A DNA stretch of 64,000 nt from Bactericera cockerelli (lineage: Eukaryota; Arthropoda; Insecta; Hemiptera; Triozidae): contig CM044961.1 of assembly GCA_024516035.1 (NCBI GenBank), positions 37,227,112-37,291,111 of the forward strand. The letters run 5' to 3'. Each line of letters begins with the position of its first letter. The stretch's first letter is position 1. The notes under the pieces were generated by a model that did no database searches, had not been told where the DNA came from, and worked only from the letters and a program-made list of their open reading frames with translations. The position numbers and the translations under genes are program-made. Below are positions 5,657 to 64,000 of the stretch, piece by piece.

Positions 5657-5791
5657 ATCGCTGGAGGTCGGGGCAGCTCGTCCCTCTCCGGGCAGTGTCG
5701 GCAAGCTTCGGATCTCGAGCGAAATGAAGCACAAGCTAGAGATGGTCACCGCCAACCATAGCTTGCGCTCCACCGACGGCAAGAACCAGAG
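5657..5791 (+). CDS. MYO15A: Myosin XV exon: linker with KLRISSEM motif
   Basis: Acceptor TTCTATTCCAG, donor CAGAG/GTGAGT. Enters at codon position 3, leaves in phase 2, and joins cleanly to the exon at 6311. It encodes a charged linker (LRISSEMKHKLEMVTANHS). This is the first exon I can recognise in the window; assignment rests on phase continuity with downstream exons more than on a named domain. Confidence 0.75.
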
Positions 5792-8700
5792 GTGAGTTCA
5801 GCCAACATGTAGAGATCCTTCAATATTCTATTAGTTGTTGTTGTAACCCAGCTATAGGCAAGCTGGTTACAACAACAACAAGATTCTTTTATCGTCTGAC
5901 TGGGGGACGTCAACCAAGGAAAAGACCATTGTTTCGATAGAGGACTAGAAAACAGACTAGCCTACCCTAACAAGCCAGACTAGCTTGAAGTTTTCCAAGG
6001 GTTTAATGGCTTATAAAGAAAAAACCAAGAATTGATCGCACATAGAAATACGTGGTTCGGAACGAGCCAACTTAGAGTTGGCTGGAGACCATCACTCTCC
6101 CCTCCGAGCTGTAGCCAAGCTGGTTACAACAACAACAAAAGCTGAAGAAGTTCAGCTTCAGCACGGTGGTTGAGCACATAGAAATACGTGGTTCAGGACG
6201 AGCCAACTTTTCATCTAGAGTTGGGTGGAGACCATCATTCCCCCCAGCTGTAGGCAAGCTGGATTTATTAATTTATTAACATCAACTAATTCATTTATCT
6301 CCGTTTCCAGGTCGGCTCTACCTCCTGCTAACAAGCTGGACTCTGACCGGAGACTCCTGCTGCAGCAGCAATTAGCCGGACGCTGGGGGAGTATGGACAG
6401 TGTGGATGCTAGGGCTGTTGTGAAGGAGGACAGATCAGACGTACAGGCCACTAACATTGTGAGGAGTCAGGTATGTGGCTCTACTAGTAGTAATAGATGC
6501 TAGAGCTGTTGTGAAGGAAGACAGATCAGACGTACAGGCCACTAACTTTGTGAGGAGTCAGGTATGTGGCTCTACTAGTAGTAATAGATGATAGAGCTGT
6601 TGTGAAGGAAGACAGATCAGACGTACAGGCCACTAACATTGTGAGGAGTCAGGTATGTGGCTCTACTAGTAGTAATAGATGCTAGAGCTGTTGTGAAGGA
6701 AGACAGATCAGACGTACAGGCCACTAACATTGTGAGGAGTCAGGTATGTGGCTCTACTAGTAGTAATAGATGCTAGAGCTGTTGTGAAGGAAGACAGATC
6801 AGACGTGCAGGCCACTAACATTGTGAGGAGTCAGGTATGTGGCTCTACTAGTAGTAATAGATGCTAGAGCTGTTGTGAAGGAAGACAGATCAGACGTGCA
6901 GGCCACTAATATTGTGAGGAGTCAGGAATGTGGCTCTACTAGTAGTAATAGATGCTAGAGCTGTTGTGAAGGAAGACAGATCAGACGTACAGGCCACTAA
7001 CATTGTGAGGAGTCAGGTATGCGGCTCTACTAGTAGTAATATCTCAATTTGTGCTTGTCACTAATAAATGATACTTTGTTTAGACTGTGAGAGTAAAAGG
7101 ACTCCTTTAGTCTCATTCTAGCAGGATAAACAGAGTTGTGTATTGTATTCTAGAGGGCGTGTTAAGGGATAGTGTTTTGTTAGATTAATCTAATCCTGTT
7201 TCATAATGTGGCCCTCTCTTAATCTAATCCTGTTTCATAATGTGGCGTCTCCCAGGTGGACAAGGTGTGGCGCGGTGCCCCCCCTCCCCCCGTGGTGCCA
7301 GGGGGCGGGCTGAGCCCCAGCAGTGGCGGCGCGGGCGGCCAGCACAACCCCCCCTCCCGCTCCAGTAGCTTCTACGACTCGCACACCACGCCCCCGGCGC
7401 CCATCGCCCCCCGCCACCCCCCCTACCAGAGCCCCGAGCACCACCATCACAACCACAGCAACCACCACCACAACCATCACGGTGAGTATATCTTTCTTTA
7501 ATATTATTTTTTAACCACATAATTATACGTCTTAAGGCCGTATCATGAAACAGGATTAAGTAAATCTAAGCTGACCCTTAGATTTTATCAGCTGATCGAT
7601 AGGTATTTTAAAATAGGTTTCCGTCACGAAGGATGGCGACATATCCGTTACGCCACAGAAGTAATATACAGCTACAAAGTCCGGCTTAGATATGACCTCT
7701 ACAGTTGTTGTCAAGGGGTTAAGGGATAGTGTCAACTAAGATTATCAAATCCTTTTTCATAATTTGGGGCATTAGTAGTCACCGTGGCCTAGCGCACTAG
7801 GCTTGCACGCAGGGTAACCTGGATTCGATCTCCAGCAAGGCAGGATTTTTATTACTCTGTACTTGCATGCCCGGGTTACACTCATACCTCGTGAGGAAAA
7901 ATGAATAGCTACTTTAATGTGAGCAGCGACCAGTGGCAAAATCAAGTTATCATATTAGTGTTAATTACAATCGTGCTATCACAACTACGCAAACTCATTC
8001 ATCTAAATATTTTCTCAACCTGCACCGACCTCTAGATTTCAAGTCATCTTATCGATCAAGCTACTGATTGGCGGAATTATAGGCAACAATAAAATATTAG
8101 GACATTAAAGGTACGGAAAAGTCCTGTAATTCTGCGCAACCCTGTAATATTAGAATTGGGATATAATAACACAAAGAAACACATTTATCTACGGTTTACT
8201 CTTGAACTATTGGGACTTATTAATCTTAATTGGACAGTATAAATAAGGCGATATTATGACAAAACACTCTGCCTCGTCTTTTCTTCTCAGTGGAGGACCA
8301 GGCGGAATTCTCGCCCGTCCCCCAGGAGTCGACCCCCCACCCCTCCCCTCCAGCAACACCGCCCCCTCCGTGCCTGCCCCCACCTCCCCCAGCCTGGCTC
8401 GGGCGCGGATGTGTCCAAGACCACCCTGTATCCGCCCCTGACCTCGGCTTACTTCGCCTACAATCGGGTCACCTGGAAACTGAACGTCAGGAAAGAGGTA
8501 ATTGATATGCATATATTTTTAAATTTTAGTTTGAGAAAAATACAATCGAACTTGGATATGAGAGAAAAACTTCCAGGTCAATTTTTTTATTATTACATAA
8601 TATATAAAAAAAAAAAACAAACTGAATAAAGTTCTTTTTTGGGGGGTACTTGCTACCCACATTAACCTCACTCAGTCTGAGTTGGGCCGGAATATCAGCA

Positions 8701-11700
8701 TCACGAAATCGTTGCTTAAGTTCGGTGATCTTACGAGAACCGGTGCATTCAACCTGGTGTTCTGTCAGATAGTAGCCGACACTCAATCTAATATCTAATT
8801 TATTGTATTCTATACCCAGGTATTCTCGCCTAAGGAGACAGTTTCCAGTCCTCTAGTGCTGCACCTGGTGTTCTGTCAGATAGTAGCCGACACTCAATCT
8901 AATATCTAATTTATTGTATTCTATACCCAGGTATTCTCGCCTAAGGAGACAGTTTCCAGTCCTCTAGTGCTGCACCTGGTGTTCTGTCAGATAGTAGCCG
9001 ACACTCAATCTAATATCTAATTTATTGTATTCTATACCCAGGTATTCTCGCCTAAGGAGACAGTTTCCAGTCCTCTAGTGCTGCACCTGGTGTTCTGTCA
9101 GATAGTAGCCGACACTCAATCTAATATCTAATTTATTGTATTCTATACCCAGGTATTCTCGCCTAAGGAGACAGTTTCCAGTCCTCTAGTGCTACACCTG
9201 GTGTTCTGTCAGATAGTAGCCGACACTCAATCTAATATCTAATTTATTGTATTCTATACCCAGGTATTCTCGCCTAAGGAGACAGTTTCCAGTCCTCTAG
9301 TGCTACACCTGGTATTCTGTCAGATAGTAGCCGACACTTTGACACAACCCTCGCCACGAATCTCTCCTGAGGAGCGCTCGGAAATGATGCAGGTAAAGTC
9401 TTCTTGAAGTCTGTGCTTAGTTTAGGCTCGGAAATGATGCAGGTAAAGTCTTCTTGAAATCTGTGCTTAGTTTAGGCTCGGAAATGATGCAGGTAAAGTC
9501 TTCTTGAGATCTGTGCTTAGTTTAGGCTCGGAAATGATGCAGGTAGAGTCTTCTTGAGATCTGTGCTTAGTATTTAGTAGAAAATATTTGAAATACTAAA
9601 CGAAGCACAGAGGCAGGCACGCGCCTGAATGTCTGCAGAGCAAGTTCAGCAAGTTGTGCTAGAAATTAAAAAAATTAAACATCAAAATTCCAAGTTTTCT
9701 GGACGTTTCAGAACCTCCTGAGCAACTTTGGTTTTGTTTCTGTCTCTCGGTCTGTCTGTGTGGCGGTCTGTTAAATACATTCCTTGTAACGCGCAAATCT
9801 CAAAAACTACTTAACGGATTTCGACGAAATTTTGTACAACTATAGAAGACATTGTAGATGGTCCCATTTTTCTCAATTCATCATCTTCGCACTAGTACTT
9901 CTTGGTGATAGAGACCATGCGCCTGACCACTAACTTTTTACTTATACGCTTATATCTCGTGAACGGTAAACCCTATTTTTGATGAAATGTTTGTATAAGC
10001 TTTTTAATGTTTTAAAAGGCCATTTGTAATTATATTTTAATTAATTATGAATTAGCTCTGATATGAAAATCCGAAATTTTCGAGAAAAAGTACAGAAATA
10101 ATGTCTTCGACTTGCAGATACAGAATGTTGGATGTAGGAAAAACGGTATTTTACCATATGATTTGACAAATTTGAAGAGTTTTGAAGATACAAGTGATTT
10201 AGTATAAAATCTCAAAATTACCACGTGTATACAATGTGAACCAATCACGAGGAAGTACTGTGTCCATAATAGGCAGTGTATTTGCATTCTTGTGCTTGTT
10301 GGTTTGCAGCTTCTGGAGCAGTACGGGGTCACGATGAGCAACATGCACACGGGTCAACACAAAGCCAGCATCAAGGGGCTGTACTAGACATGACCCAGCA
10401 CTGGCTTATGTACTTTGCTACTATATTCAGCATCTCTGTAAGTATATACCTATGTAGTCCATATACTATACATACAAGTGGGCTGTACTAGACATGGCAA
10501 GACACTGGCTTATGTACTTTGCTACTATATTCAGCATCTCCGTAAGTATATACCTATGTAGTCCATATACTATACATACAAGTGGGCTGTGCTAGACATG
10601 GCCCGGCACTGGCTTATGTACTTTGCTACTATATTCAGCATCTCTGTAAGTATATATGTCGTCCATATACAATACATACAAGTGGGCTGCACTAGACATG
10701 GCCCGGCACTGGCTTATGTACTTTGCTACTATATTCAGCATCTCTGTAAGTATATATGTCGTCCATATACAATACATACAAGTGGGCTGTACTAGACATG
10801 GCAAGACACTGGCTTATGTACTTTGCTACTATATTCAGCATCTCTGTAAGTATATACCTAAGTAGTCCATATACTATACATACAAGCGGGCTGTACTAGA
10901 CATGACCCAGCACTGGCTTATGTACTTTGCTACTATATTCAGCATCTCTGTAAGTATATACCTATGTAGTCCATATACTATACATACAAGTGGGCTGTAC
11001 TAGACATGGCAAGACACTGGCTTATGTACTTTGCTACTATATTCAGCACCTCTGTAAGTATATACCTATGTAGTCCATATACTATACATACAAGTGGGCT
11101 GTACTAGACATGGCAAGACACTGGCTTATGTACTTTGCTACTATATTCAGCATCTCTGTAAGTATATACCTATGTCGTCCATATACTATACATACAAGTG
11201 GGCTGTACTAGACATGGCAAGACACTGGCTTATGTACTTTGCTACTATATTCAGCATCTCTGTAAGTATATACCTATGTAGTCCATATACTATACATACA
11301 AGCGGGCTGTACTAGACATTGCAAGACACTGGCTTATGTACTTTGCTACTTTATTCAGCATCTCTGTAAGTATATACCTATGTAGTCCATATACTATACA
11401 TACAAGCGGGCTGTACTAGACATTGCAAGACACTGGCTTATGTACTTTGCTACTTTATTCAGCATCTCTGTAAGTATATACCTATGTATTTTGGCACTTT
11501 TCCTAGCATAATCTCTTGCACATTTGGGCGATATTGGACAAATTACCATCCGAGGTCTAATCATTACATTTGTTTACTCTTGCAGGGAGGACACCAGTAC
11601 CCTGACGTACAGCTGGTAGCCATAGGGCACTCCGGTATCCGCCTGGGCAGACTGGACCTGAACCACCTCAGAGTGCTGCACAATATCAGGTGAGAATATG

Positions 11701-14700
11701 AAGATAGCGTGATTAATAATATAGATTTTTTTTTTTTAAGAATAGAATAGAATAAAAATATAATTGTATTTCTCAATAAGAGTTTACAATAGAGGTTGAT
11801 GCAAGTTTTAAACAATAATTCTAAAATCACATAGTAAATTTTAAAAAAAACCATTACTACATGCTATTATTTTGTAGTGCCACATAATTTTTCCCCCCAT
11901 TTTTCTTCTTCTTTTTCCTTTCTGTGATTAATAATATAGTAATAACACTCTTTAGTGAAAGGTAACCACCAGGCGAGGTTAATGTTCAAAACATTTTCTG
12001 TACCACCTAACCCTTAGAGTCTTATTATCATGTGGTCACAAACTCAAATTAATGAGAAAAAAAATCGTGATTCGAAACAACGGATCCCTACGCTAGTTGG
12101 ATTACCAGACTAGCGCGCCACGGTTACAGACTAAAATTGTGATAATAACACAGAGAACACAAATTTATTATTTTTATTTACTTAAGATCTATTTATTCTT
12201 TTTATTTATTTTACATTTAATTATTATTTTTCTTTACTTTGCATTTATTTATTATTTTTCTGTATTTTACATTAATTTATTATCTACTTTTATTTACTTC
12301 ACATCTATTTATTCTTTTTATTTATTTTACATTTAATTATTATTTTTCTTTATTTTGCATTTATTTATTACTTTTCTTAATTTAAATTTATTTATTATTT
12401 ATTTTACGTATTGTTTCAGCCTGGAAGACATCTCAGAGTCCGTGATGTCCAAGACAGGGTCCTCTCTGCAGGTGGTTCTACAGTCAGGCGAGAAGTTCCC
12501 TATTCATTCTCCCCGGGCGAGACAGATTCACACCCTGCTGCACGCCTTCATTGTGGAGGTGAGACAGATACACACCCAGCTATAATAGTTCCGTAAGATA
12601 GGCATAGTGTTGTACTCTTGTACAAAGCTCTCTTTATTTTGAAGAACCGCCAAGAGTTAATAAATTAATTAATTCCCACTGGTGGCAGCACCATACAGTG
12701 TTAAATCCCTCTTTTTTCTATTATTTCAACTAAAAGTGGTTATAACGTACTGCAAAAAAATATTAATTTTCTCCTTGTTCCATTCTAGGGTGGGGCCGTT
12801 GTACAAATGCAGTCATGTACTTAATATAAACTTCTACTAAATTTCCTCCTTGTTCATTCTAGGGTGGGGCCGTTGTACAAATGCAGTCATGTACTTAATA
12901 TAAACTTATACTAAATTTTCTCCTTGTTCATTCTAGGGTGGGGCCGTTGTACAAATGCAGCAAGAATCCCGCCTCACCAAGCAGTGGCTCAGTGAGAACC
13001 ATCACGCTCATGACAACAGACCCTCTCAACACTCTCCCCTCCATCTCTCTCACCCCCAGCAGCACAGGAAGCTCTCTCTCACCCATAGCCCCACACCCAC
13101 ACCCATGGTAAGTACAATTCCTTTAATAACACTCTTTAGTGGAAAGTAACCACCAGGTGAGGTTGATGCTGAAAGCATTTTCAACCACCTAACCCTCCGA
13201 GTCTTATGTGGTCACAAACTCAAATTATTGAGGAAAAATTCATGCACTGGGTGGGATTCAAACCAACGCATCCTTACACTACCTGGCTTACCAGACTAGC
13301 GCGTTAACCAGTTGACTACCCTTGCACGGAGAACTCTAGGGACGGGAATCTTTTTCTCATCTTAATATATAAATGTCAAAGTCACTGACTGACTGACCAC
13401 TCACTGACTGATCATCGCTCTACAGCCCAAACCGTAAGTCCTAGGAAGCTGAAATTTGGTAGGTAGCTTTGTCTTATAGTCTAGATGTGCAAAAAGACGG
13501 GATTTTTCGAAACTCCCACTACAACACCTGCAATTGGCGAAAAAGGATTTTTTGCTTTCACGGCCATGCCTCGGCCCGCAAAGGGGGCGACAGCCCGCTA
13601 GTACTCATATATATCCAGGTTTCTCTTTTAAAGAGTTTATTTTCACTGAGAGAGAAGTACATTGGACCTGAAAATTATTCTCTTTTTCACTTATCGATCA
13701 AGCTACTGAGGTCGGTAAGTTTTATTACTCATTTATAAGTCTTATTAAATTTTTATTCTAATTGGGTCAAATTCTCCCCTCAGATCGAGGATGACGGCAA
13801 GCACTCGCTGCTCCAGTTCGCAATGCATCACTTCCGACAGTTTGAGAACATGAAGAGTGCTAATGGAGAGTTGACGGTGGGCGGGTCAGGACGCAAGAAG
13901 TCTTCCAATGATTGGACCTGGCGGGAACAGGTGAGAATAGAATAGATAGTCTGGATTGGGAACATTAAAAAGGCAAGTGTCTCACTAGAGGACTATAAAG
14001 AGAGCATGGACTGGCCAATCCTATCAAACCAGACTAGCTTAAAGAATAACCAAAGTGCTCACGATGGTTGATCGCACATAGAAATATGTGGTTCAAGTTT
14101 TTTTATAAAGTAAATAAAGAAATATTTATTTATTTATTTACTTCTAATAAAGGGGCGGACCCGTTTATTATAAGTAAATAAACTTGAACTTAAAAAAAAG
14201 ACTAGCCGACTTTCAACTTATGTTGGCTGGAGACTATCACTATGTTACGGAGGTCATTTTTGAACAAACATCAAAAAAGCCTGCTCTCTGGTGTAGGGAA
14301 TTGATTTTCTGCCCGAAAAACTCTATAGGCACAAAGAAACCTTTATTTTGGGTTAAGGGCTCTGAGTGTTACAGACCTCTCTTTATATAGATGTTCATTA
14401 AAAAAAAAAAAAAATTCTTAAATTTTGTACAGTGAACGGGCGGACCATTTGCTACTAATCCTAACTAGGCTAATTACATGACAAGTTACCAAAAGTTATC
14501 ATATTTGTGTTAATCACTTTCTTGATATCACAACTACTCAAACTCGCTTTACTAAATCTACGCTGAAACCGGGACTTGAACCACCGACCTCCAGGTTACA
14601 TGTCCGCCGCCTTATCGATCAAGCTACTGAGGTCGGTTACCATTTGACAATTTACCATTTGAGATTTTGACCACCTAATAATACGTCTCGGACTTACTGC

Positions 14701-17700
14701 TGGAATAATTGGACTCAATAGACCAAATCGGGCAGTATAAATAAGGCGATATTATTATTATTAATTTAAATCTATGTTGTATTTTTTCTCTTCTCTTCCC
14801 CAGTTGGACCTGGTCAAGTTCACTTGCGTCCCCATCTCGGAGCCCCTACTCAGGCTAGAGCCGCCCCTGGGGGAGATAGCTGTGGAGTGCTTCGAGTGTA
14901 TCATGAGGTTCATGGGCGACCTGCCCACCACCCCTGACCTCACAGAGGTCAAGTGTGTCTACACCATCCTCATGGTAAGTCTACACCATCCTCATAGTAA
15001 GCTACCATAATAATAATAATGAATTTATTTGTTTCTGAAATGTGCATTTAAATTTCTAAATTTCCCTCTAAGTGCTAAGGGTACTTTTAGGAAATTTATT
15101 TATTTATTTACACAATATTTTTTTTATTCAAAACAATCAACAATAAATTAATAACAAGGAAAAAAAAACTTAAAATTTATAGAAAAAAATTAATATAGAA
15201 CAATATTATTTATATTTACAATTGTCTTGTTATCCTGGGCTAAGTTAATGCATTAGGCATTCTCTGCCACTGAACCCCGAATGTATTGTATCTTGATTCT
15301 ATATCTATTGTATCTGTCCCGGTAGCTCAGTGGTAATGGCGGCACTCTGTGAATCCAGAGAATCCAGATGTCGTGGGTTCAAAACCCTGCCGGGACATGA
15401 CAAGTTATCCTCCCATTTGGGATTTTTACCACATAATAATATGTCTTGGGGTTACTGCTGGAATAATCTGACTTAATAGTTTAATCGAACAGTATAAATA
15501 AGGCGATATTATTATTATTGTAAACAATGTAAACGATAAAAAGTAAAAGTTCAGCATACTCTTACTTTTTTTCATTTAATTACCTCTTTTCTTGTTGTGT
15601 TTTTTTTTTTCCTTATTTTAAAATGATTTCACTCTTGAGATGACCATTTGTTTGTGTTGGTCCAATCTTGCGACTCTATGATTCCACGCTACCTACTCAA
15701 ATTGTGACATATAATAATAATAATAATAATAATAGTACACACCAGAACCCGTGCTAGAATCAAAAAGCCATTTACTCTACTGGGACCAAACCATCCTAAC
15801 AGATAGAACTGTAGCCCACAACAGACCTGATTTGATCTACATCAATAAACAAGAAAAAACAGCTTTAATGATAGATATAGCTGTTCCTTTGACTCACAAC
15901 ATCACAAAAACAGAAATAGAAAAAATCAGCAAATACGAAGACCTTAAAGAGGATATGAAGAAGACGTGGAAACTGAAGTCAATCAGAATAATACCAATTG
16001 TAATGTCAAGTGAAGGTGTGACTTCGTATAATTTCTCGAAGAACATTGAAATGGTTGGCATCCGGAAATCAGTGAAATGGAAGATCCAGAAAAGTGTCAT
16101 CTTACAATCCTGCTATCTAGTCCGAAAGTTTTTGAGTTCCTAATTTTTTTTAATTCTAATTTTAATACTGATCGTCAAAGTTTATGTGAGAAAGTATGAA
16201 TTTACTCCTCACATAAACTAAGAAAAACTGTTAATAAAAGTACATGTTCATGGTTCATAATAATAAAACACCCTAGGTGCACGGTGTGCACTCGGTGTTA
16301 TGAAGCAATGCATCATCCTTGGCACAAGCCGCCAAGTGGTACCCAGAAATAATAATAATAATAATAATATATAATAAATCATTTGTTTTATTTTCATATT
16401 ATAATTATTATTATTGGACCCATCCTAAGCTATTTTTATTTGCCTTCTAAGATGAGATAAAGAAACACATTTCTGTATTCCCCCCAGCACTGCCACACAC
16501 ACGAGCCGCTGCGGGACGAGGTGTACTCGCAGCTCATGAAGCAGACCACCTCCAACAAGACAGAGAGCTGTCAGCGGGGCTGGCGGCTCTTGAGCATCGT
16601 GGCCGCCTACTTCACCTGCTCGGACACACTGCGGCCCTTCCTGCTCAAGTACCTGGAGACCGCGGCCTATGACAAGCGCCGGGCCTTCCATGGTGAGTTT
16701 CCTATGATAAGCGACGGGCCTTCCATGGTGAGTTTCCTATGACAAGCGGCGGGCCTTCCATGGTGAGTTTCCTATGATAAGCGGCGGGCCTTCCATGGTG
16801 AGTTGGTCGGGTTTTTTGGGGAGTTTGATATTAATAATAATCATATCAGTAGCTTGATCGATAAGGCGACGGATTTGTAACCTGGAGGTCGGTGGTTCAA
16901 GTCCCGGTTTCAGCGTAAATTTAGTAATGCGAGTTTGAGTAGTTGTGATATCACGAAGGTGATTAACACAAATATGATAACTTTTAAACTTTAACTTAAT
17001 AATCATATCGCCTTATTTATATTATTATTATTATTATATAATTCTTTATTAGATACAAAAGGACATAATGTACATATAAATAATAATTTTAACAGTGAAA
17101 AATCAAAAAAACAATATATACAATAAAAATGAAAAAGAATAGAAAATATTTGAAAACATAAATGTCCTAACTAAAGGGCGGGGTTATTGCCTATGGCAAT
17201 AACCCGATTAGTGACTATTAAAGTCCCATTATTCCAGCAGTAAGCCCAAGACATATTATTATGTGGTTAAAATCCCGAAAGGGAGGATAACCCAGCCGGG
17301 CGGATTGTCCCGGCTGGGTTTCGAACCCGCGACCTCTGGAATCTCTGGATTCACACAGTGCCGCCTTTACTACTGAGCTACGTCTTTCAACTGCATGGTC
17401 ATATCACGACGGGGGTGTTACGCTTCATTCGCAGGAAACTCACAAAACAGCTATCCACATTACCCTACCCCAGCCTGGGTTGGGCCGGAATGCCAGCATC
17501 ACAAAGTCTTCACCTCGCTGGACTCAGTTTAACTTCGGTGATTTTACGAGAACCGGTGCATTGAACGCGCCATCGACGCTGGCAGTTGTTCGTTTAGTTT
17601 GGTTTTTTTGTGTGTGCTTTTTTGCATTACGACGCCGCGAGGAGGTGATAGCTGTATCTGTTATTATTATTATTATCCCCCAGGCACGGCTAGCGTGTGT

Positions 17701-20700
17701 CTTCAGAACCTGCGCAAGACGCTGCGCTATGGAGGCAGGAAGAATGTCCCCTCTGTGGAGGTGACAGCTGTATCTGTTATTATTATTATTACTATCCCCC
17801 AGGCACGGCTAGCGTGTGTCTCCAGAACCTGCGCAAGACGCTGCGCTATGGAGGCAGGAAGAATGTCCCCTCTGTGGAGGTGACAGCTGTATCTGTTATT
17901 ATTATTATCATCCCCCAGGCACGGCTAGCGTGTGTCTTCAGAACCTGCGCAAGACGCTGCGCTATGGAGGCAGGAAGAATGTCCCCTCTGTGGAGGTGAC
18001 AGCTGTATCTGTTATTATTATTATCATCCCCCAGGCACGGCTAGCGTGTGTCTTCAGAACCTGCGCAAGACGCTGCGCTATGGAGGCAGGAAGAATGTCC
18101 CCTCTGTGGAGGAGGTGACAGCAGTGTCTGCCGGGCGGAACTCCAAGCGACAGCTGTACCGGCTACCAGGCGGCAGCGAGACGGTCATCAACACCAAGAG
18201 TACAACGGTGAGTCGCGTCGATTAGCTAGGGGCCCGTAAAAGAGGTTTGACTGATGTTAAATTTCTAAAAATTGGGTATATTGTTTTTTTTTTTTTTTTT
18301 TTTTTTTCTTCTAATAATTAACTCATAATTTGAATCCTAGTCATAAACAAGTGTTTCTACATAAATGGGTATTTAGTATTGTGCATGAAAAGTAAGCCAA
18401 TGCGCGATGGTAAATGATATTAATTTATCATTTGATTGAGAATTGGTTGGGAAATTATTGGGAATTCCTAATTTATTTATGACATTTCACCATCAGGTAG
18501 TGCTGCATAGAGATGTGCCAGCTTGAGATGGAGGAGTGTATAGCCTCTTACTAGACCTAACCCCTGTGTTTCTCCCCTCAGGTAGTGGAGGACATCTGCA
18601 TAGAGATGTGCCAGCTTGAGATGGAGGAGTGTATAGCCTCCACTAGAACTAACCCCTGTGTTTCTCCCCCCAGGTAGTGGAGGACATCTGCATAGAGATG
18701 TGCCAGCTTGAGATGGAGGAGTGTATAGCCTCTACTAGACCTAACCCCTGTGTTTCTCCCCTCAGGTAGTGGAGGATATCTGCATAGAGATGTGCCAGCT
18801 TGAGATGGAGGAGTGTATAGCCTCTACTAGAACTAACCCCTGTGTTTCTCCCCTCAGGTAGTGGAGGACATCTGCATAGAGATGTGCCAGCTTGAGATGG
18901 AGGAGTGTATAGCCTCTACTAGACCTAACCCCTGTGTTTCTCCCCTCAGGTAGTGGAGGACATCTGCATAGAGATGTGCCAGCTTGAGATGGAGGAGTGT
19001 ATAGCCTCCACTAGAACTAACCCCTGTGTTTCTCCCCTCAGGTAGTGGAGGACATCTGCATAGAGATGTGCCAGCTTGAGATGGAGGAGTGTATAGCCTC
19101 CACTAGAACTAACCCCTGTGTTTCTCCCCTCAGGTAGTGGAGGACATCTGCATAGAGATGTGCCAGCTTGAGATGGAGGAGTGTATAGCCTCTACTAGAC
19201 CTAACCCCTGTGTTTCTCCCCTCAGGTAGTGGAGGATATCTGCATAGAGATGTGCCAGCTTGAGATGGAGGAGTGTATAGCCTCTACTAGAACTAACCCC
19301 TGTGTTTCTCCCCTCAGGTAGTGGAGGACATCTGCATAGAGATGTGCCAGCTTGAGATGGAGGAGTGTATAGCCTCTACTAGACCTAACCCCTGTGTTTC
19401 TCCCCTCAGGTAGTGGAGGACATCTGCATAGAGATGTGCCAGCTTGAGATGGAGGAGTGTATAGCCTCCACTAGAACTAACCCCTGTGTTTCTCCCCTCA
19501 GGTAGTGGAGGACATCTGCATAGAGATGTGCCAGCTTGAGATGGAGGAGTGTATAGCCTCCACTAGAACTAACCCCTGTGTTTCTCCCCTCAGGTAGTGG
19601 AGGACATCTGCATAGAGATGTGCCAGCTTGAGATGGAGGAGTGTATAGCCTCTACTAGACCTAACCCCTGTGTTTCTCCCCTCAGGTAGTGGAGGATATC
19701 TGCATAGAGATGTGCCAGCTTGAGATGGAGGAGTGTATAGCCTCTACTAGACCTAACCCCTGTGTTTCTCCCCTCAGGTAGTGGAGGACATCTGCATAGA
19801 GATGTGCCAGCTTGAGATGGAGGAGTGTATAGCCTCTACTAGACCTAACCCCTGTGTTTCTCCCCTCAGGTAGTGGAAGACATCTGCATAGAGATGTGCC
19901 AGCTTGAGATGGAGGAGTGTATAGCCTCCACTAGAACTAACCCCTGTGTTTCTCCCCTCAGGTAGTGGAGGATATCTGCATAGAGATGTGCCAGCTGATC
20001 AACGTGAGCAATGACCTTGAGATGGAGGAGTTCAGCCTGTATTGTATTGTGGAGGGAGATGCCTTCACCATGCCTCTGGCTAAGGAGGAGTATATTCTTG
20101 ACGTTACCACGGAGCTACACAAGAACCAACAGGTATGTTTTTTTGGGGAGTTTATTATTATTATTATTTCTGGGTACCACTGGACGGCTTGTGCCAAGGA
20201 TGCATTGCTTCATAACACCGAGTGCACACCGTGTGCACCTAGGGTGTTATGTTTCATGGATGACAGGATAAAATTATTATTATTATTTAATTATTTATTA
20301 ATAGTACATTATGTACAATTGTACAAACAAGTAATGATAAAAATTAAAATACAAAATTTAGAAAAATATAAACAAGAAAAAAAGATAAACAACATAGATA
20401 AAACATAAACAGATGGCAATATAGAAAAAGAGCATCCTAAAACTAATCTCTGAGTGAATTCAACTGGTTTAACGTCCAATATGTAAACTCTGAGTGCATA
20501 AATAAATATGTGAGATACTTGTACTGATAAGATTCTGCATGAATAAAAAAGAAAATTTGTAGCCCCGACCTCCTCGTTTCAACTAATCACCACGCTCCCC
20601 GTTGCTTCCCCCAGGTGTTCTACCTCATCTTCTGCCGGTCCGTCTGGTATTTCCCCCTGCGGCTAGACTGCCAGCTCTACGTGCAAGTTCTGTTCAACCA

Positions 20701-27565: not shown

Positions 27566-28068
27566 ATAGTTCCAGCTCACCTTACAGTACATGAGTCTGG
27601 ACAGACAGAAGAGCGCTATCCAGTAGACACTTCCAGCTCACCTTACAGTACATGAGTCTGGACAGACAGAAGAGCGCTATCCAGTAGATACTTACAGTAC
27701 ATGAGTCTGGACAGACAGAAGAGCGCTATCCAGTAGATACTTCCAGTACATGAGTCTGGACAGACAGAAGAGCGCTATCCAGTAGATACTTACAGTACAT
27801 GAGTCTGGACAGACAGAAGAGCGCTATCCAGTAGATACTTACAGTACATGAGTCTGGACAGACAGAAGAGCGCTATCCAGTAGACACTTCCAGCTCACCT
27901 TACAGTACATGAGTCTGGACAGACAGAAGAGCGCTATCCAGTAGATACTTCCAGCTCACCTTACAGTACATGAGTCTGGACAGACAGAAGAGCGCTATCC
28001 AGTAGATACTTACAGTACATGAGTCTGGACAGACAGAAGAGCGCTATCCAGTAGACACTTCCAGCGCA
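27525..28068 (+). repeat. Coding-end/stop array in myosin XV 3' UTR
   Basis: About ten copies of TACATGAGTCTGGACAGACA followed by GAAGAGCGCTATCCAGTAGA, in units of 50 or ~60 bp. The first is the true C-terminus with stop. Copies differ in whether AGCTCACC is present. Confidence 0.93.
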
Positions 28069-34035: not shown

Positions 34036-34066
<31 letters not shown>

Positions 34067-45623: not shown

Positions 45624-46245
45624 CTGTGGAGTGGAGTTGGATGATGCTGACTGGCTCGACGTTGCTTAACATATATGGTGTGATACAAAAATTATACAGC
45701 GAATTCCAAGTACATATTATGTGAGATAAGATTAACTGTCTACACATACCTGCATTATCACCTGGAATGGAGTTGGATGATGATAACGGGCTCGACGTTG
45801 CTTAACACATGGTGTGATACAAAAATTATACAGCGAATTCCAAGTGAATATTGTGTAAGATAAGATTAACTGTCTACACGTACCAAATGAACTGCATTAT
45901 CACCTGGAATGGAGTTTGATGATGATAACTGGCTCGACGTTGCTTAACACATGGTGTGATGCAAAAATTATACAGCGAATTCCAAGAGCATATTATGTGA
46001 GATAAGATAAGATAAGATTAATTGTCTAGACATACCAAATGAACTTCATTATCACCTGGAATGCATGATAATAACTGGCTCGACGTTGCTTAACATATGG
46101 TGTGATACAAAAATTATACAGCGAATTCCAAGTACATATTATGTAAGATAAGATTAACTGTCTACACATACTAAACGAACTGCATTATCACCTGGAATGG
46201 AGTTGGATGATGATAACTGGCTCGACGTTGCTTAACATGGCGGGG
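45615..46245 (-). repeat. TK1 acceptor-junction array, ~140 bp x 5
   Basis: The TK1 acceptor with the first few exon bases and ~130 nt of upstream intron is repeated; CAG/GTGATAATG junctions on the minus strand near 45762, 45904, 46055 and 46192, plus the real one at 45623. The step is 137-151 bp. Confidence 0.88.
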
Positions 46246-50353: not shown

Positions 50354-51426
50354 CTATTGTAACATAAGTGGTGACTCGTGAGTTAGGAGTCTCACAAGGG
50401 ACAGAGATGTCATCTGCTGAGCAATGTGGAGGCAGGTTAGTCCGTGGTGGTTCTTGATATTTGTCCTGGCCCCTGCTTTCAGTAGTAGGGCTGCTAGGTT
50501 GGTGTGATTGTTGATAGCCGCATAGTGCAGTGCTGTGTTGCCTCGGTGATCCTGTGCATTCAAGTTGCAATGCTTAGCTGCTAGGAGGAGTCTTACAATA
50601 GAGAGGTTGCTATTCTCACACGCAATGTGGAGTGGTGTCAGCTGCTTCACCCTAGTCACAATGTTGATATCTGCACGGTAATTAATCAGGAGTAGTACCA
50701 GGTCATAGTGCCCTAATGAGGTAGCAATATGCAATGCGGTGTAGCCATCACTGTTGCAGATATTAATGTTGAGACAGTCATTCAACATGGCTTGACTAGA
50801 ACTATTGCTGTCCAGGACGTCGACCCCTTCCTCTGTCTCTTCTTTACATTTAGAACACTGACACAGCGGGTGACATGCATTGTCTGGTACTTGTTCTTCA
50901 TTACTTATCCCAAAGTATATTTTAATCCTCTTGATATCATTATTTTCAATTAGGGCAAATAATTGTTCAACTTTCTTGATTTCTGTGATATTCTTGGGTC
51001 GTACACCTTCACGTGTGTTCACATTGGATGCATGAGACTCATTCACATCAGTATAGTCAAGGTACTTGTTAGGTGGAGGTGACGGGGGACTGGATGATGA
51101 CTTCTCTTTGGGAATCAAATAGTTGAACAAGGGTTTTGTGGGTTTGTGTACATATGAGTTGAGTAGCTTGGCAACATGAAGGTTGTTAGCATTCTGTAGG
51201 GGGGTAACTTTGCGTTTGTTTTCCAGGAGTGGGTTTGCACCATGGTCCAGCAGCAGTTGCACGATGGAGATGTAGCCCCATCGTGCTGCTGAGTGAAGAG
51301 GGCTATCTCCCTGGTTGTTGACGGCATTTACATTGAGACTGAGGAGTTCTTGTTCATTGAAGTAAATGAGAGCTTTGACACAGGTCTCATGACCATTGTT
51401 TGTGGAGAGATGGAGTGCTGTATTGC
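50354..51426 (-). CDS. ANKRD27: ANKRD27 coding exon 2
   Basis: Acceptor CATTTTCTTTTCAG. Starts inside the third ankyrin repeat (GNTALHLSTNNGHETCVKAL) and continues through ARWGYISIVQLLLDHGAN, a Ser/Pro linker, the second CHPLC motif and the C-terminal ankyrin block to TAG. Confidence 0.95.
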
Positions 51427-53467
51427 CTGAAAAGAAAATGAACTCATGTGAGAAACAGTTTTAAAAAGATGAAGGTCAAAGTGTTGAAAATTATGTAATT
51501 CAGTAGGTAGGTAGGTACCTACTTACTTTCCAAAAGGATTATTTAAACCAAATGTCTTGATTACAAAAGCAAATAATAATTAAAATTACCAGTAATAATT
51601 TACTCATTTAATTTTCTTTAGTCTTAGGTATTCAACTACTCAAGCATGAGATCAAATGATTTTATCAACAAAAACCATTCATTCTTCTATGAAACTCAAG
51701 AAAATGTTGTGTACATGAATCTCAAAAATAAATTTATTAGTTAGCTTTAGGATGACATAAATATATAAAAAAAAATAAAATGTAATTACCTTCATTATCG
51801 GGCAGATTGATAGAAGATCCTGAGTGAAGTAGAAGCAGCAGAACATTCTGGTGACCTCTTGTGGCTGCATAATGCAACGGAGAACAACCACACAAGTCTT
51901 GAGCATTTGTATCAGCACCCAGCTCCAGCACAAGATCCACTACCTTGATTCGGCCATAGAGTGCAGCCACATGCAACACAGTGAAGCCTCGGTCATCAGT
52001 GCTCTGAGTGGTGGGCTTGGTTTGAAGCTTCAAGTTTATTGTTTCCTCACAATCATCACAGGAACAGAGAGGGTGACACAGAGGCAAACATTCCAACTCT
52101 TCCTTGCTAGTTTCCTCTTGTAAAATAGATCTCACCTTATCCACATCTCCTAGCCGAGTATTCTCAAACAGTTTTGTGAGAGATGAAATCTTCTTGTAAT
52201 TATTGTACTTGTTATAAACTTTAAGCTGATTGGTCAAGTCTGACATTTCAACAGTGGGTTTAAACTTAGCACTAGCAGCTTCTTGATCATCATAGCTCAT
52301 GAGAGCTTCAGGTTCTGAAGGTCCAATCAGAAGTCCTGACTTGATATGTTCAATAGAAGCTTCCAGGGATGTGATAAGGAAGCTGTCTTGGTCCATGTAC
52401 ACATCTGATGATTGAGAGAAGTGAAACTGTTTCATAAATGTTAGATGAGCTATCCAGTTTGGTAATGCACATTTCACAACAAGAAACACAATCATGGGTA
52501 GAAGATCATCCACTGTAATTATATTTCCTTGTAATTTTTCCCTACAGTCTTCCTTGCTGATTGCTGAAATACATCTCCGTACACACCCAATTTTGCCTAG
52601 GATTGTGCTGTAGCAGTCTATGTGAGACATCTCACTTCTAGCACGAGGAACAGTATCATACAGGTCTTCCCGGATATCTAAATCTTTCAACTGAATATCA
52701 GACAAGTTCCTTATCATTTTATTAAACTGAGCATCTTCTACAGCTGTACAGGCTGTAATTCCTTTGATCAGAGTTTTGTAGATTCCATGATGCATGTAGG
52801 TTTCAACAGCAAGTTTGATACTATCAATCAGATATCTGTTGCAAGCAATGCTTTGTCTCAGCTGATTATCTTTCAAACAAATATTTAAACAATTCTGATA
52901 AAGTTTTTGAACTAGATATTTTTGTTTATCAAAAGAATTGTATTCAAATTGGCTATTGGTTAGAAGAAACATTTTGATTGATTCGTCCATTTTCTCAAAG
53001 ATTTCTTTGCCTTTACTCTCTGTCCACAAGAGATCTATGCAATCCCGCAGAGTTTGAACATTAGATATGGATGTATCATTAGTGTTCTCCAAGTTAATAT
53101 CTAAAGGACTATCAATACACAAGACTTTGTATTTGAGCATTTCATCTGTGTAGTAAGTTTCTTCAAATAATATTTGAGTACTGAATGTGGAGCCACCATC
53201 AGCCTCAATACTTATCACTCGGTTACAAATCCTGATCTCCTGATCATCCAGGGTCCTGAAATGTGTCTCCGGTAATTCCTCACTTGGGATTAATATGTGA
53301 TTGAAGAAATCTTCATATGTTAGTGCATACTTTGGTAGTGAGCAAACCCGGGGAATACATATGATCCATCCTTCTTGAGTAGCTTTCTCAAACAGTTCTC
53401 CATGTTCTACCTTCAGTGCTTTGAAAAAAATGTTTTCACTTAAATCTTCATCGTATGTAGATTCCAT
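50354..53467 (-). CDS. ANKRD27: ANKRD27/VARP: VPS9 and ankyrin-repeat protein
   Basis: Endosomal scaffold and Rab21-type exchange factor that binds VAMP7, Rab32/38 and retromer (family knowledge). Two coding exons: 53467-51790 and 51426-50354, a phase-1 intron with GT-AG, total 916 aa against ~1050 in vertebrates. N-terminus YDEDLSENIFFKAL aligns with the family start; PILFEET-like QILFEETYY at ~98; VPS9 region ~235-375 with DDLLPMIVFLVVKCALPNWI; cysteine motifs CHPLCSCDDC at ~464 and CHPLCQCSKC at ~744, which in VARP bind zinc and retromer; ankyrin blocks ~490-640 and ~780-910. It ends right after the last ankyrin repeat, so the vertebrate C-terminal tail is absent. No junction arrays here. 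Confidence 0.96.
51790..53467 (-). CDS. ANKRD27: ANKRD27 coding exon 1
   Basis: Carries the N-terminus, VPS9 domain, first CHPLC motif and first two ankyrin repeats. Donor GATAATGAAG/GTAATTAC; phase 1. The start ATG at 53467 is the one that aligns with the family N-terminus (MESTYDEDL). Confidence 0.95.
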
Positions 53468-54470
53468 TGTGACACTAAAATAGTGTTTTTAATAAAAAAT
53501 AGTAAAATACACTAAAAATAAGCTAATAATTGTCACATGAAGAAAGAGTTTATTCTTGAGTTGGAAACTTCCTAGACCAATCCAGTACACAGACTGGAGA
53601 AATCAATGAGCTTCAGTGTTTTCTATTGTATGAAAGCAGAACATAATACAGGAAGGACTGAATCACTTTAAACTACTCTATCAAATATCTATATTAGACT
53701 GATATCTGATATTTAAGATAATCAAGTTTAGAGCACTGATAAAAACAAGTTCAGAATTATTATAATGTTAGAACCAGATGAGAGATCTATCACAATGAAT
53801 TTCTTTCTAAAATCAAAAACACAATAAACTAGCAACTTTAATGTTAGAGAGCGTCTCTCCGTCTGATGATTAATGTCTCACAAAGGTTATAAATTGATCA
53901 TTTAAATAGGTAATTTAACTCTTTAAAAAATATTGATAAGATTGATTTTCCATTACATAATTAAAAAATTGCTAGAGAAATGTTTTTTTGTTTACATCTT
54001 TTTATCAAAAGGGTCAAGTTCTCCAAGACAGTTTTGCGATTTTTCCTGCAGCGGTTTCTCACCACTTGGATGGACGAGTTTCAATAACCGTCAATTATTC
54101 CAGCGGTCGAACTGATGGACCATACAAGAATACATTTTTAAAATCCAGCGATAAAAAAACTCAGCAAATTAACGATCGCTGTGTCCCCGGTGAAAGTGGT
54201 GTTTTGGAATTTTGGACGTGGAAATCTATACAAAAGATTGATTGGGTTTTAAGAACTCTTTGATCTATTTTTAGGTTATGGCTAATTCAACTACAAATTA
54301 TGTAAAATCAGTGACTGCCCTGGGCAAAGTGTAGGAATTTGGTGACAAATTATGTTAATGTTAGTAAGATCACAAGGACCTTGAAAAGACGACTTTTCAC
54401 AATAATGTATCTCTTACTAATGTCACTCTCAGAATGAAACACGTCAGACAAGATATTGGTGTACTCTTAC

Positions 54471-57286: not shown

Positions 57287-57287
<1 letters not shown>

Positions 57288-59690: not shown

Positions 59691-59691
59691 T

Positions 59692-61270: not shown

Positions 61271-61326
61271 TTACTCTCCCTCCTCCTCATCATGCTTCCG
61301 CTTCTTGCCCCGCACTTCCTTGCCTT
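61271..61326 (-). CDS. ANP32: ANP32 last exon with nuclear localisation signal
   Basis: Acceptor CTCATTCACAG. 56 nt ending in TAA. Encodes the KEVRGKKRKHDEEEGE terminus, a basic signal followed by acidic residues. Confidence 0.8.
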
Positions 61327-64000
61327 CTGTGAATGAGAGAAAAATTACATCAATAAATAAATGAACCTTTATTTGGAATAAGTTAAGTACAAAAGTATAA
61401 ATTAAATTATTACAACTTTTTCTTAAAAGAAGAAAATTCATCTTTCCTTACCTAACCTAACACTGAACTTGTTTTTCTTGGGTCAAGGTTTTAAATTTTG
61501 AACATTGTTTGTCTGACTGATGAATTTGAAAATAATGTCGGTGGTTTGAGATTCATATAATTCATATATTAATCATTATATGTAATAAAATACTAAGGGC
61601 GGAATTAATAGACGTTTTTGTAATACCTCTGTGGCGCTAAGTCACGGATTGCGTACTGTGTAAGATAGGGAAAACCAACACTTAGCAGTGACTTGTGCTA
61701 TAGAATTTGTCTATTAATTTCGCCCTAAGTGTGTGCTGCCAGACGTACCCGTGTCTTCCTCGTCCTCATCTCCTTCCTCCTCATCCAGCCCATCATCCTC
61801 CTCCTCCTCCACATCCTCCTCTCCCTCATAGTCGTCTCCCTCACTCTCCTCCTGCCAGCGGGAAATCAAACAGACATGAAATTAGAATGAAAAATAATAA
61901 TATCACCTTATTTGTACTGCCCGATTAGGACTATTAGGTCCCATTATTCCAGCAGTAAGCCTAAGATGTATTATTATGTGGTAGAATTCCCAAATGGGAG
62001 GATAAGTTGTCATGTCCCGGCTGGGTTTCGAACCCGCGACCTCTGGAACCTCTGGATTCACAGAGTGCCGCCTTTACCACTGAGCTACCTGGACAGACAA
62101 TAAGCAACACACAAATAATAATAACACTCTTTAGTGGAAGGTAACCACCAGACGAGGTTAATGCTCAAAGCATTTTCCACCACCTAACCTTCAGAGTCTT
62201 ATGATCATGTGGTCACGAACTCAAATTAATGAGGAAAAATTCATGCACTTTGTGGGATTCGAACCAACGTATCCCTCTGCTACCTGTATACGTGAGGTTT
62301 GATCCATTGCATTTTGCATCACATTTTCATAAGAATTGAAATTACATACGTTTTTGTAGATGATATTAAGGGCGAAATTAATAGATGTTTTTGTAATACC
62401 TTTGTGGAGATAACTCTTCATTTTCCGTTTTGCCTTAGATGGTGAAAACTAATGCTAAGTCTTGACTTAAATATCGATTTTGTCTATTAATTTTGCCGCT
62501 AATGTCGAAATAGTTCCCTGACCTCAGTAGCTTGATCAATATGGTGGTGGACTTGTAACCTGGAGTTTTGTGGTTCGAGTCCCAGGTTAGGTAAAAAAAA
62601 AATAGCAGTATGAGATAGAGTAATTGTCACGTCACAAATAGGATAACTTTTGTTGTAGTTGTTGTTGAAATATGTTGTATAAAAATGAGCGGGTCAAAAC
62701 CAAACAATCAAAATGAGGGCCTCAGATCAAAATGAGGAGCTTGTAGGTCTGGATATAGGTCTTTAGTCTGTATGCAGTGTCCCTCAAACCTGTTTACACA
62801 ATTGCAGCATTATTTGCTGCGTGTAAACAGGGATGAAAAAAAAATATCTGAAGTTACTTACATCAAACTTATCATTGTAGACAGCCGCTAGTCCTGGATC
62901 ATTCTCATCATCGTCTTCCTCATCTTCTGCGGAGTCATCATCATCTTCCTCATCATCATCTGGGAAAGCAAACACATAGACGAGTCAAAATAATAACTCA
63001 TTATTTTTAAATGAAAATAACAAAATAGGTACATTGTATATTTCTCAGGGTGGTATGCTGAGTCCTCACTGTAGGGATGCCTGGGTCATTTGTCACTTCA
63101 GCTGATTTTGTTATGCAGAGACGTTTGTGTGAAGCGCCTGTGCGCATGAGCATTCAAATGTCTCTTGAAAGAAGAGATTTTTGAACGCTTCAATTTGTAT
63201 TTGTTTTGTATTATCAATAAACCATGCAAGAAATGAGGAGGTAACAAATAATTGTCAAGGTCGAAGTTTTCCCTATAGCAAGCTCGGGACCACCTTTTCA
63301 GTGAACCTTATAGGGATAAAAACAAAAAAAAAAAGTCTCTGCATACCAGCCTAAGGAACTCACACACTAGACTAGCATAACTCTTAGATCCACTTGAAAA
63401 AACCACAATATGCAATATGTATAGATTGCTTGTCTTTGAGATCCCACACCAACAGCATAACTGTTGCTGTGGGATCTCAAGCTGCACCAAATAGCAGCTA
63501 CTACAGATGCTTGTGGTCTGTGTTGTAGCCTGCCCATCCTGTAGTATGCCTGATAGGCGACAAGTGAGACAATTTTTCCCATGTAGGTACTCTGTCATCA
63601 CGAGTGCACCAGAAGGTATTCCTTACAATCAACTATAACCAACCTTTGAATACATTTTTTTTGTTTGCTATGGGATCTGAATTGACCTTCTGCATGGCAA
63701 GCAGGTACCTATTTACCTAACACCTCCATAAAAGAAATTCTAATCATTATCTCTCATCCTTTCCACTACATCTCTCTCATTTCCATTCATCTCAATCTCT
63801 CACTCATCCTCCACATCCATCCTCACTCAACCTCTATATTATCTCACCTTCATCCTCACTATCATCCTCTCCTCATTTCCTCACATCATCCTCTAATCAT
63901 TATCTCACCTTCATCCTCACTATCATCCTCCTCCTCATTTCCGTTCACATCATCCTCTATCATATCTAATCTCATTCATCCTCACTATTCCTTCACATCA
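61271..64000 (-). CDS. ANP32: ANP32-family acidic nuclear phosphoprotein, C-terminal exons (5' part outside window)
   Basis: Exons on the minus strand: one ending at 63909 (start unclear), 62959-62862, 61851-61749 and 61326-61271. Phases 1, 0 and 1 agree. The product is almost wholly Asp/Glu: EDDVNGNEEEDDSEDE, then a run ending PGLAAVYNDKFD, an EGDDYEGEED stretch, and the end GKEVRGKKRKHDEEEGE before TAA. An acidic tail closed by a KKRK-type signal, with a GL-x-x-x-Y motif inside it, is the layout of ANP32/mapmodulin proteins, which act as histone chaperones and PP2A inhibitors. The leucine-rich repeats lie beyond the window. Another acidic nuclear protein cannot be fully excluded. Confidence 0.8.
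61597..61725. mobile_element. TIR MITE copy, best preserved
   Basis: GGGCGGAATTAATAGAC and GTCTATTAATTTCGCCC, flanked by TAA on both sides (possible target duplication). Lies in the ANP32 intron. Confidence 0.8.
61749..61851 (-). CDS. ANP32: ANP32 acidic exon
   Basis: Acceptor CCGCTGGCAG, donor ACACGG/GTACGT. 103 nt. EESEGDDYEGEEDVEEEEDD and more acidic residues. Confidence 0.8.
61896..62098 (-). mobile_element. tRNA-derived SINE, family C
   Basis: Full-length reverse copy inside the ANP32 intron; GGGTTTCGAACCCGCGACCT and CCACTGAGCTACC. Confidence 0.85.
62121..62285 (-). mobile_element. tRNA-derived SINE, family B, truncated
   Basis: AACACTCTTTAGTGGAAGGT to GGGATTCGAACCAACGTATC, broken before the A box. 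Confidence 0.78.
62370..62497. mobile_element. TIR MITE copy
   Basis: GGGCGAAATTAATAGATG ... TGTCTATTAATTTTGCC; flanks TAA/TAA-like. Confidence 0.75.
62519..62660 (+). mobile_element. tRNA-derived SINE, family A, diverged
   Basis: ACCTCAGTAGCTTGATCAAT ... GTGGTTCGAGTCCCAGGTTA; tail degraded. Confidence 0.65.
62862..62959 (-). CDS. ANP32: ANP32 acidic exon, PGLAAVYNDKFD
   Basis: Acceptor GCTTTCCCAG, donor TTTGAT/GTAAGT. 98 nt. Asp/Glu run, then NDPGLAAVYNDKFD. Confidence 0.8.
63840..64000 (-). repeat. ANP32 donor-junction duplication, 61 bp
   Basis: Two copies of the exon end GTGAGGATGAAG/GTGAGATAAT, with donors at 63908 and 63847, plus a decayed third copy toward 64000. The copy at 63909 keeps the longer exon (GTGAACGGAAATGAGG). 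The pattern matches the other genes in the window. Confidence 0.75.

What the first reader, a model, noticed from the sequence alone, without database searches (positions are those of the whole stretch)
5657..64000. Tandem arrays anchored on splice junctions across three unrelated genes
Seen: at least ten exon-intron borders of myosin XV, two of TK1 and one of ANP32 are tandemly copied. Each unit is a short exon end plus adjacent intron and contains the GT or AG site. Periods differ for each junction (35 to ~145 bp) but are locally constant, and copies carry point differences. Generic minisatellites would not be expected to centre on splice sites so consistently. Inference: a duplication process that starts at or is tolerated only at junctions, perhaps linked to splicing, R-loops or replication slippage; or a systematic assembly fault. 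ANKRD27, also in the window, has none.
Basis: partly seen in the sequence, partly recalled or inferred. Interest (0 to 1): 0.92.

Follow-up and report, generated by a model that had tools for sequence, protein, structure and literature searches.

The report
Repeated splice junctions in a psyllid
In a sap-sucking insect, many exon-intron borders are copied head to tail, some of them dozens of times; the same oddity was seen before in a few genes of the lancelet, and it poses a natural test of how cells pick one splice site among many near-identical ones.

Summary
13 of 20 non-low-complexity arrays in the window overlap a splice junction (random placement 4.4; 0 of 20,000 trials reach it): 11 on MYO15, 2 on TK1. 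An ANP32 array enters from outside the window. One MYO15 array sits on the stop codon, not on a splice site. The genome is a psyllid (ANKRD27 92% identical to Diaphorina citri). The pattern continues outside: MYO15 upstream (5 of 16 arrays, P 0.0005), CTR9 (5 of 12, P 0.007), ANP32, a TACC-like gene and, on another contig, TRPA1. Per position, arrays are about 8 to 25 times commoner at junctions than elsewhere in the same genes. Units are unrelated between arrays. None of 133 decoy sites in the MYO15 tail arrays gives a stop-free in-frame exon; MYO15 proteins of relatives show no border twice. This is the structure called "mirages" in amphioxus, here in an insect and denser. Shared variants and a five-unit pattern argue against an assembly fault, but no reads were available. 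A genome-wide count could not be run: the search service stayed unreachable. Whether duplication is drawn to splicing or merely survives at exon edges is undecided.

The parts
5657..27565 (+). MYO15 tail, 18 coding exons (MyTH4-FERM end of unconventional myosin XV); one-base frame breaks at C- and G-rich runs in exon 4 (about 8380) and exon 6 (about 10372)
6405..7041 (+). donor array, 91 bp x 7, real donor after 6470 (first copy)
8752..9338 (+). acceptor array, 111 bp x 5.3, real exon start 9264 (last copy)
9376..9571 (+). donor array of the same exon, 50 bp x 3.9, real donor after 9392
10372..11488 (+). donor array, 104 bp x 10.8, real donor after 10437
12765..12960 (+). acceptor array, 74 bp x 2.6, real exon start 12937
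14957..15005 (+). donor duplication, 22 bp x 2.3, real donor after 14974
16666..16804 (+). donor array, 35 bp x 4, real donor after 16692
17639..18130 (+). acceptor array, 116 bp x 4, real exon start 18035
18503..19996 (+). acceptor array, 92 bp x 16, with a five-unit variant pattern; real exon start 19962
22229..26145 (+). acceptor array, 46 bp x about 86, with 78 decoy acceptors within one mismatch; real exon start 26143; poor-consensus stretch about 23090-24080
26310..27012 (+). donor array, 77 and 51 bp units, real donor after 26373
27581..28069 (+). array of the coding end with stop codon plus 3' flank, TRF periods 49 and 110; exon edge but no splice site
44068..44340 (-). TK1 donor array, 140 bp x 2, real exon end 44256
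45627..46237 (-). TK1 acceptor array, 142 bp x 4.3, abutting exon start 45623
63820..64000 (-). distal end of the ANP32 acidic-tail donor array (about 61 bp units, followed by TRF to 3.28 kb past the window end)
50354..53488 (-). ANKRD27, coding part in two exons, no array; used to identify the organism

Best explanation
These are mirage-type minisatellites: real tandem duplications, each of private sequence, that overlap an exon-intron border. SHOWN from sequence: unit = exon end plus adjoining intron in most cases; copies keep their GT or AG; arrays are enriched at borders; in the MYO15 tail only the copy next to the exon body fits the reading frame, the rest lie in the intron. INFERRED: a short tandem duplication arises by slippage or unequal exchange, grows and is homogenised by further unequal exchange, and is harmless when it overlaps an exon edge because the splicing machinery takes the exon-proximal site and removes the other copies with the intron. 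Duplications wholly inside an exon are removed by selection unless their period is a multiple of three. The excess over intron interiors further needs duplication to start more often in or beside exons (exon sequence, transcription or the border itself); which of these is open.
For: Enrichment: window; MYO15 16 of 29 arrays, 17 of 76 junctions, null mean 1.94, maximum 10; MYO15 outside the window 5 of 16, P 0.00045; CTR9 5 of 12, P 0.007; rate per kb of start positions 3.79 v 0.153, 2.23 v 0.162, 2.75 v 0.350. Other genes: TACC-like (exact border copies 15, 8, 34, 18, 4), ANP32 (11, 3, 12), TK1 (2, 3); TRPA1 on contig C5, an 82 bp x 11 acceptor array and a 25 bp x 2.1 donor duplication. Splice dinucleotide intact in 169 of 201 copies, or 137 of 138 when two arrays with slipped register or no AG are left out. 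Splice-core columns vary no more and no less than flanks (P 0.70 and 0.71), as for neutral copies. Decoys within one mismatch: 133, of which 49 in frame, 0 in frame and stop-free. Periods of junction arrays are multiples of three in 9 of 34. Relatives: of 12 arrayed border peptides 11 are found in P0241 and 10 in Cacopsylla P0242 (60% ungapped), each at one place apart from a second 6-of-9 match of one in P0242; neither protein repeats a 10-mer with more than four kinds of residue. Exon edge rather than splice site only: stop-codon array 27581-28069; repeats of 39, 21 and 33 bp inside open frames. Units unrelated: 1 of 595 array pairs with a weak 21 bp match.
Against: Some junction arrays hold almost no exon (6 bp at ctg 24969, 3 bp at window 26143; one stops 4 bp short of the exon at ctg 250681), which an exon-sequence bias does not predict. 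None of the arrays lies wholly inside an internal MYO15 exon, although there is room for 4,261 starts of a 55 bp unit; selection would explain that. Splicing in this species was not observed; P0242 is another psyllid and P0241 is of unnamed source, at 88% identity presumably another psyllid too. Two of the 12 border peptides were not found in P0242 and one in P0241. Only about 90 kb of called bases outside the C7 region were seen; apart from TRPA1 they held few exons and no clear junction array. The tests rest on arrays merged by fixed rules; low-complexity arrays were dropped.
Confidence: 0.68

Rival explanations
1. A duplication process targeted to splice borders themselves, coupled to transcription and splicing (polymerase pausing, R-loops or fork stalling at borders), and not only to exon DNA.
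For: Enrichment at both donors (9 of 38) and acceptors (8 of 38) of MYO15; arrays with little or no exon sequence; both borders of one exon arrayed with unrelated units (8752-9338 and 9376-9571; an ANP32 exon).
Against: The stop-codon array and repeats inside open frames show duplication without a splice site; many arrays are off junctions. No data on R-loops, expression or replication.
Confidence: 0.2
2. Assembly fault: collapsed or looped long-read assembly multiplied single-copy borders.
For: Stretches rich in 1-3 bp deletions inside the 46 bp array (about 23090-24080) and in the ANP32 array; two frame breaks at C- and G-rich runs; variation in the 91 bp array is mostly singletons (7 of 8 sites); in D. 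citri 'false tandem duplications' and 'falsely duplicated exons' were reported (passages).
Against: Substitutions shared by several copies: 3 informative and 2 singleton sites in the 16-unit array, the 3 following nearly the same five-unit rhythm, and 8 informative and 7 singleton sites in the 10-unit array; an exon copy with two private bases; a 5 bp deletion shared by four neighbouring TRPA1 copies. Duplicated haplotypes would be expected to give long blocks, not 22-160 bp units repeated 2 to 86 times at borders (inference).
Confidence: 0.07
3. The extra splice sites are kept because they do something, for example feed some transcripts into decay or buffer the real site.
For: GT or AG intact in 137 of 138 copies after two arrays are left out.
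Against: Splice-core columns vary as often as flanks; no decoy examined yields an open in-frame exon; unit sequence and period differ from border to border.
Confidence: 0.05

Closest known systems
Mirage minisatellites of amphioxus (Adh3, globins BflGb6 and BflGb9, troponin C, PGBD5)
   Same: Tandem repeats spanning exon-intron borders, 5' and 3' borders alike, units of minisatellite size, many copies keep AG/GT, BflGb6 units 81-100% alike, regular splicing reported as undisturbed there (PMC3087553 section 16; PMC3902484 passage)
   Different: Insect instead of cephalochordate; up to about 86 copies against 6 and 3 units in the two BflGb6 haplotypes; 17 of 76 junctions of one gene; enrichment measured here; splicing and length instability not tested here
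Variable internal tandem repeats of human segmental-duplication genes
   Same: Minisatellites, some at exon-intron borders (PMC2812944 passages)
   Different: There they lengthen exons or introns or create introns in recent paralogues; here the copies lie in introns of conserved genes
Intron gain by tandem duplication of AGGT proto-splice sites (Rogers; Zhuo et al. 2007; citing passages seen, the papers themselves not read)
   Same: Tandem copies with splice signals
   Different: No new intron is seen here
Introner elements (recalled)
   Same: Multiply splice sites in a genome
   Different: Introners share sequence between sites; here only 1 of 595 array pairs has even a weak match

Membership tests
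mirage minisatellite | tandem repeat of minisatellite-size units | tested here: met
   34 junction arrays with TRF periods 22 to 249 bp, the longest being multiples of shorter units
mirage minisatellite | unit spans an exon-intron border with exon and intron parts | tested here: met
   18 of 19 arrays measured hold both parts; at ctg 248348 the script gives no intron part, although the TRF unit read by eye carries GTAAGT
mirage minisatellite | both 5' and 3' borders are affected | tested here: met
   MYO15 9 of 38 donors and 8 of 38 acceptors
mirage minisatellite | many copies keep AG or GT | tested here: met
   169 of 201 copies; 137 of 138 without the two misregistered arrays
mirage minisatellite | mRNA splicing is not disturbed | not testable with these tools
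   only indirect: no doubled border in MYO15 proteins of relatives and no open decoy frame
mirage minisatellite | length polymorphism or somatic instability | not testable with these tools
   one assembly, no reads
intron gain by tandem duplication | a duplicated segment has become a new intron | tested here: inconclusive
   arrays sit beside exons whose borders recur in relatives' proteins; intron positions were not compared with other species
introner elements | copies at different sites share sequence | tested here: not met
   1 of 595 pairs, 21 bp

The most novel reading that the evidence does not exclude
In psyllids a mutational process acts genome-wide at splice borders, coupled to transcription and splicing, so that a fifth or more of the junctions of affected genes carry growing arrays of decoy splice sites that the spliceosome passes over by position alone.
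Probability: 0.25. Interest if true: 0.8.

Novelty: new member of a known kind. Interest (0 to 1): 0.6.

Why it matters
Mirages were described in a handful of lancelet genes, and the 2010 globin paper calls their origin unclear. A psyllid genome with dozens of them would allow the cause to be tested by counts and population data, offers natural splice-site competition (78 near-identical acceptors before one true acceptor), gives a possible route to intron change, and warns that tandem copies of exon ends in psyllid assemblies may not all be assembly errors.

Tried and rejected
A cephalochordate origin was considered because mirages are known there; ANKRD27 and MYO15 matches to psyllids rejected it. 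A subtelomeric cause was considered because the window lies about 0.9 Mb from the end of C7; ten 3.5 kb pieces 1 Mb from contig ends had 0.5 of 21 kb (right ends) and 0.8 of 14 kb (left ends) in arrays, and TRPA1 in mid-C5 has junction arrays. Stronger conservation of the splice core, suggested by copy counts (donors 16 of 945 against 159 of 4043 elsewhere; acceptors went the other way, 86 of 480 in the core), vanished when columns were counted and is not claimed. An introner-like spread was rejected. TRPA1: the script scored 3 of 3 in-gene arrays as on an exon edge, null mean 0.26, P 0.0006, but exon ends there are rough and the third array (23 bp x 2) lies beside an open-frame end with no verified splice site, so only two are claimed. 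The first part of TRPA1 looked at showed no clear junction array. Random pieces were poor in exons; frames that I would label BTB-type (L031) and short mitochondrial-subunit-type (L029), labels recalled, had no array at their edges, but their splice sites were not mapped. The 33 bp array at the cut start of L026 contains a donor-like GTGAGTAT on the minus strand; its context is not held. CTR9: 14 of 15 exon pairs gave a junction. Dropped rows: arrays whose two commonest bases make up 75% or more (window test) or 78% or more (contig tests), periods under 20, and in the contig tests TRF scores under 80; one mis-set junction pair (91815/95037) was replaced by hand and two missing pairs were added. 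Array shares of the C7 region and of other pieces used slightly different composition filters. Species: size would suit Bactericera cockerelli (565 Mb here; PMC12203342 gives 266 to 567 Mbp for earlier psyllid genomes), not tested.

Papers: PMC3087553 abstract passages, section 16 and passages; PMC3902484, PMC2812944, PMC11659978, PMC12203342 passages only; PMC9631999 searched for four terms in the main text, none found; others search listing only. Canestro et al. 2002 was not held. That I know no report of mirages in insects rests on the ten searches in open-licence papers only, mostly by listing.

Full report
CHECK. Tandem Repeats Finder lists 71 rows in the window. I built the MYO15 tail by hand (18 exons, the 17 introns all with GT and AG). 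Pfam gives MyTH4, FERM_M and, below its cut-off, an RA-like domain; PDB gives myosin VII tails first. A protein search names the gene unconventional myosin XV, with P0241 (2,747 aa from an 8,901-base contig, no name, 88% identical) and Cacopsylla melanoneura P0242 (83%) best. ANKRD27 is 92% identical to Diaphorina citri and 88% to Cacopsylla. The genome is therefore a psyllid. TK1 matches human thymidine kinase.

Of 20 arrays that pass the composition filter, 13 overlap one of 45 junctions; arrays placed at random reach a mean of 4.39 and a maximum of 12 in 20,000 trials. Within MYO15, with arrays collapsed to one unit, 11 of 12 against a mean of 2.22 and a maximum of 8. The twelfth repeats the stop codon region. 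The window was, however, picked for this feature, so outside tests were needed.

OUTSIDE THE WINDOW. I fetched 100 kb on each side, six random 7 kb pieces (one holds 3,924 N), 9 kb and 8 kb next to one of these, and ten 3.5 kb pieces 1 Mb from contig ends. With P0241 and insect CTR9 proteins, tblastn and a small splice-site search gave 38 introns of MYO15 and 14 of CTR9 (the MYO15 tail). MYO15: 16 of 29 arrays touch 17 of 76 junctions (null mean 1.94, maximum 10, none of 20,000 reach 16). The part outside the window alone: 5 of 16 (null 0.74, P 0.00045). CTR9, about 100 kb away: 5 of 12, touching 5 of 28 junctions (null 1.37, P 0.007). Per kb of possible start positions the rate is 3.79 on junctions and 0.153 off them in MYO15, 2.23 and 0.162 outside the window, 2.75 and 0.350 in CTR9. 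These counts may be low: donor arrays read by eye at ctg 256459 and 257730, the low-complexity one near 252048, and the array 12 bp from the donor at 64317 were not scored.

More genes in the same 264 kb, read on the minus strand: a coiled-coil gene with a sub-threshold TACC_C match (20.8 bits, cut-off 29.9) has an acceptor border in 15 exact copies and donor borders in 8, 34, 18 and 4; ANP32 (leucine-rich repeats; the name is recalled) has an acceptor in 11 and donors in 3 and 12 exact copies; TK1 has a donor in 2 and an acceptor in 3. In all, 34 of 66 complex arrays, 26.2 of 36.1 kb, lie on junctions (assignment partly by eye); one of the remaining 32, at ctg 191105, I later read as another donor array. 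Elsewhere arrays are rarer: 2.5 kb in about 82 kb of called bases in L022-L038, against 32.6 of 264 kb, with slightly different filters. TRPA1 on C5 (fly TRPA1 chain 7ykr at 5e-170) showed no clear junction array in the part first fetched but further on has an 82 bp x 11 acceptor array, whose last copy continues as a frame that aligns to fly TRPA1 (81 bits), and a 25 bp x 2.1 donor duplication. The feature is thus on at least two large contigs and in six genes, unevenly.

ANATOMY. For donors the first copy, for acceptors the last copy, joins the exon body. In the 11 MYO15 tail arrays (one has no decoy) there are 133 further sites within one mismatch of the real one; 49 would keep the frame and none would do so without a stop. 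tblastn with P0241 hits the same residues repeatedly in this DNA, for example those ending at 1868-1869 seven times, while the relatives' proteins themselves show no doubling: 11 of 12 arrayed border peptides are found in P0241 and 10 of 12 in P0242, each at one full-strength place, and neither protein repeats a 10-mer of more than four residue kinds. The border at 26143 was the one found in neither by this test; it rests on the tblastn alignment that begins there. Splice dinucleotides are intact in 169 of 201 copies; two arrays account for nearly all the loss, the 46 bp array, whose ungapped register slips (32 of 56), and one that stops short of the AG (0 of 7); without them 137 of 138. Column counts show no special conservation at the splice core. 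Periods are multiples of three in 9 of 34. Units of different arrays are unrelated. The intronic part of the unit is 0 to 38 bp at 11 donors and 20 to 57 bp at 8 acceptors; its fraction averages 0.31 and 0.52, too few arrays for a claim.

REAL OR ARTEFACT. The 16-unit array has three informative sites that repeat with nearly the same five-unit rhythm; the 10-unit array has eight informative and seven singleton sites; the exon copy of the 91 bp array differs from all six others at two sites, though most of its variation is singletons; the 111 bp and 77/51 bp arrays have 1 and 2 informative sites. Four neighbouring TRPA1 copies share a 5 bp deletion. Independent consensus errors should not make such patterns. 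Some stretches are plainly poor (23090-24080), so copy numbers of the longest arrays are uncertain. Diaphorina annotators treated duplicated exons as assembly faults; that possibility stays open until reads are checked.

MECHANISM. Shown: the structure, the enrichment, the unusable decoys. Inferred: copies are spliced out by use of the exon-proximal site. Tolerance alone cannot explain the excess at borders, since intron interiors should tolerate copies at least as well; some bias towards exon edges in formation or upkeep is needed. The stop-codon array, and repeats of 39, 21 and 33 bp inside open frames whose coding status was not checked further, point to exon DNA in general; junction arrays with 0 to 6 exonic bases point to the border itself. 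I lean to the first and give the second 0.2.

KNOWN KIND. Amphioxus mirages match in the four features that could be tested; splicing and instability could not. The new points are the insect host, the number of copies and the measured enrichment.

Noticed in passing
window 23090-24080: Stretch inside the 46 bp array with many 1-3 bp deletions, as in unpolished long-read sequence; similar noise in the ANP32 array beyond the window end.
   Followed up: partly
window about 8380 and about 10372: One-base frame breaks at C- and G-rich runs in MYO15 exons 4 and 6, probably consensus errors.
   Followed up: partly
window 1-272 and 759-1297: Inverted repeats: 1-141 against 1156-1297 (97.9% identical) and 131-272 against 759-904 (89%); probably a foldback or transposable element.
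   Followed up: partly
window 8048, 13690, 14611, 16852, 21602, 27172, 30587, 49364: A 14-base motif CTTATCGATCAAGC (either strand) recurs eight times in tRNA-like stretches, probably a SINE family.
   Followed up: no
L013 6468-9449 (minus), contig 180468-183449: 994-codon open frame with 39 bp and 21 bp repeats inside the frame.
   Followed up: partly
L020 8002-9486 and L021 300-835: GA-rich arrays whose unit ends in a donor-like border (KQIEDE then GTAAGA), left out of the statistics as low complexity.
   Followed up: no
window 33685-34269, 36160-36357, 42543-43245: Long GA-rich tracts.
   Followed up: no
L026 1-355: 33 bp x 10.8 array on contig C6 with a donor-like GTGAGTAT on the minus strand; flanking sequence not held.
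   Followed up: no
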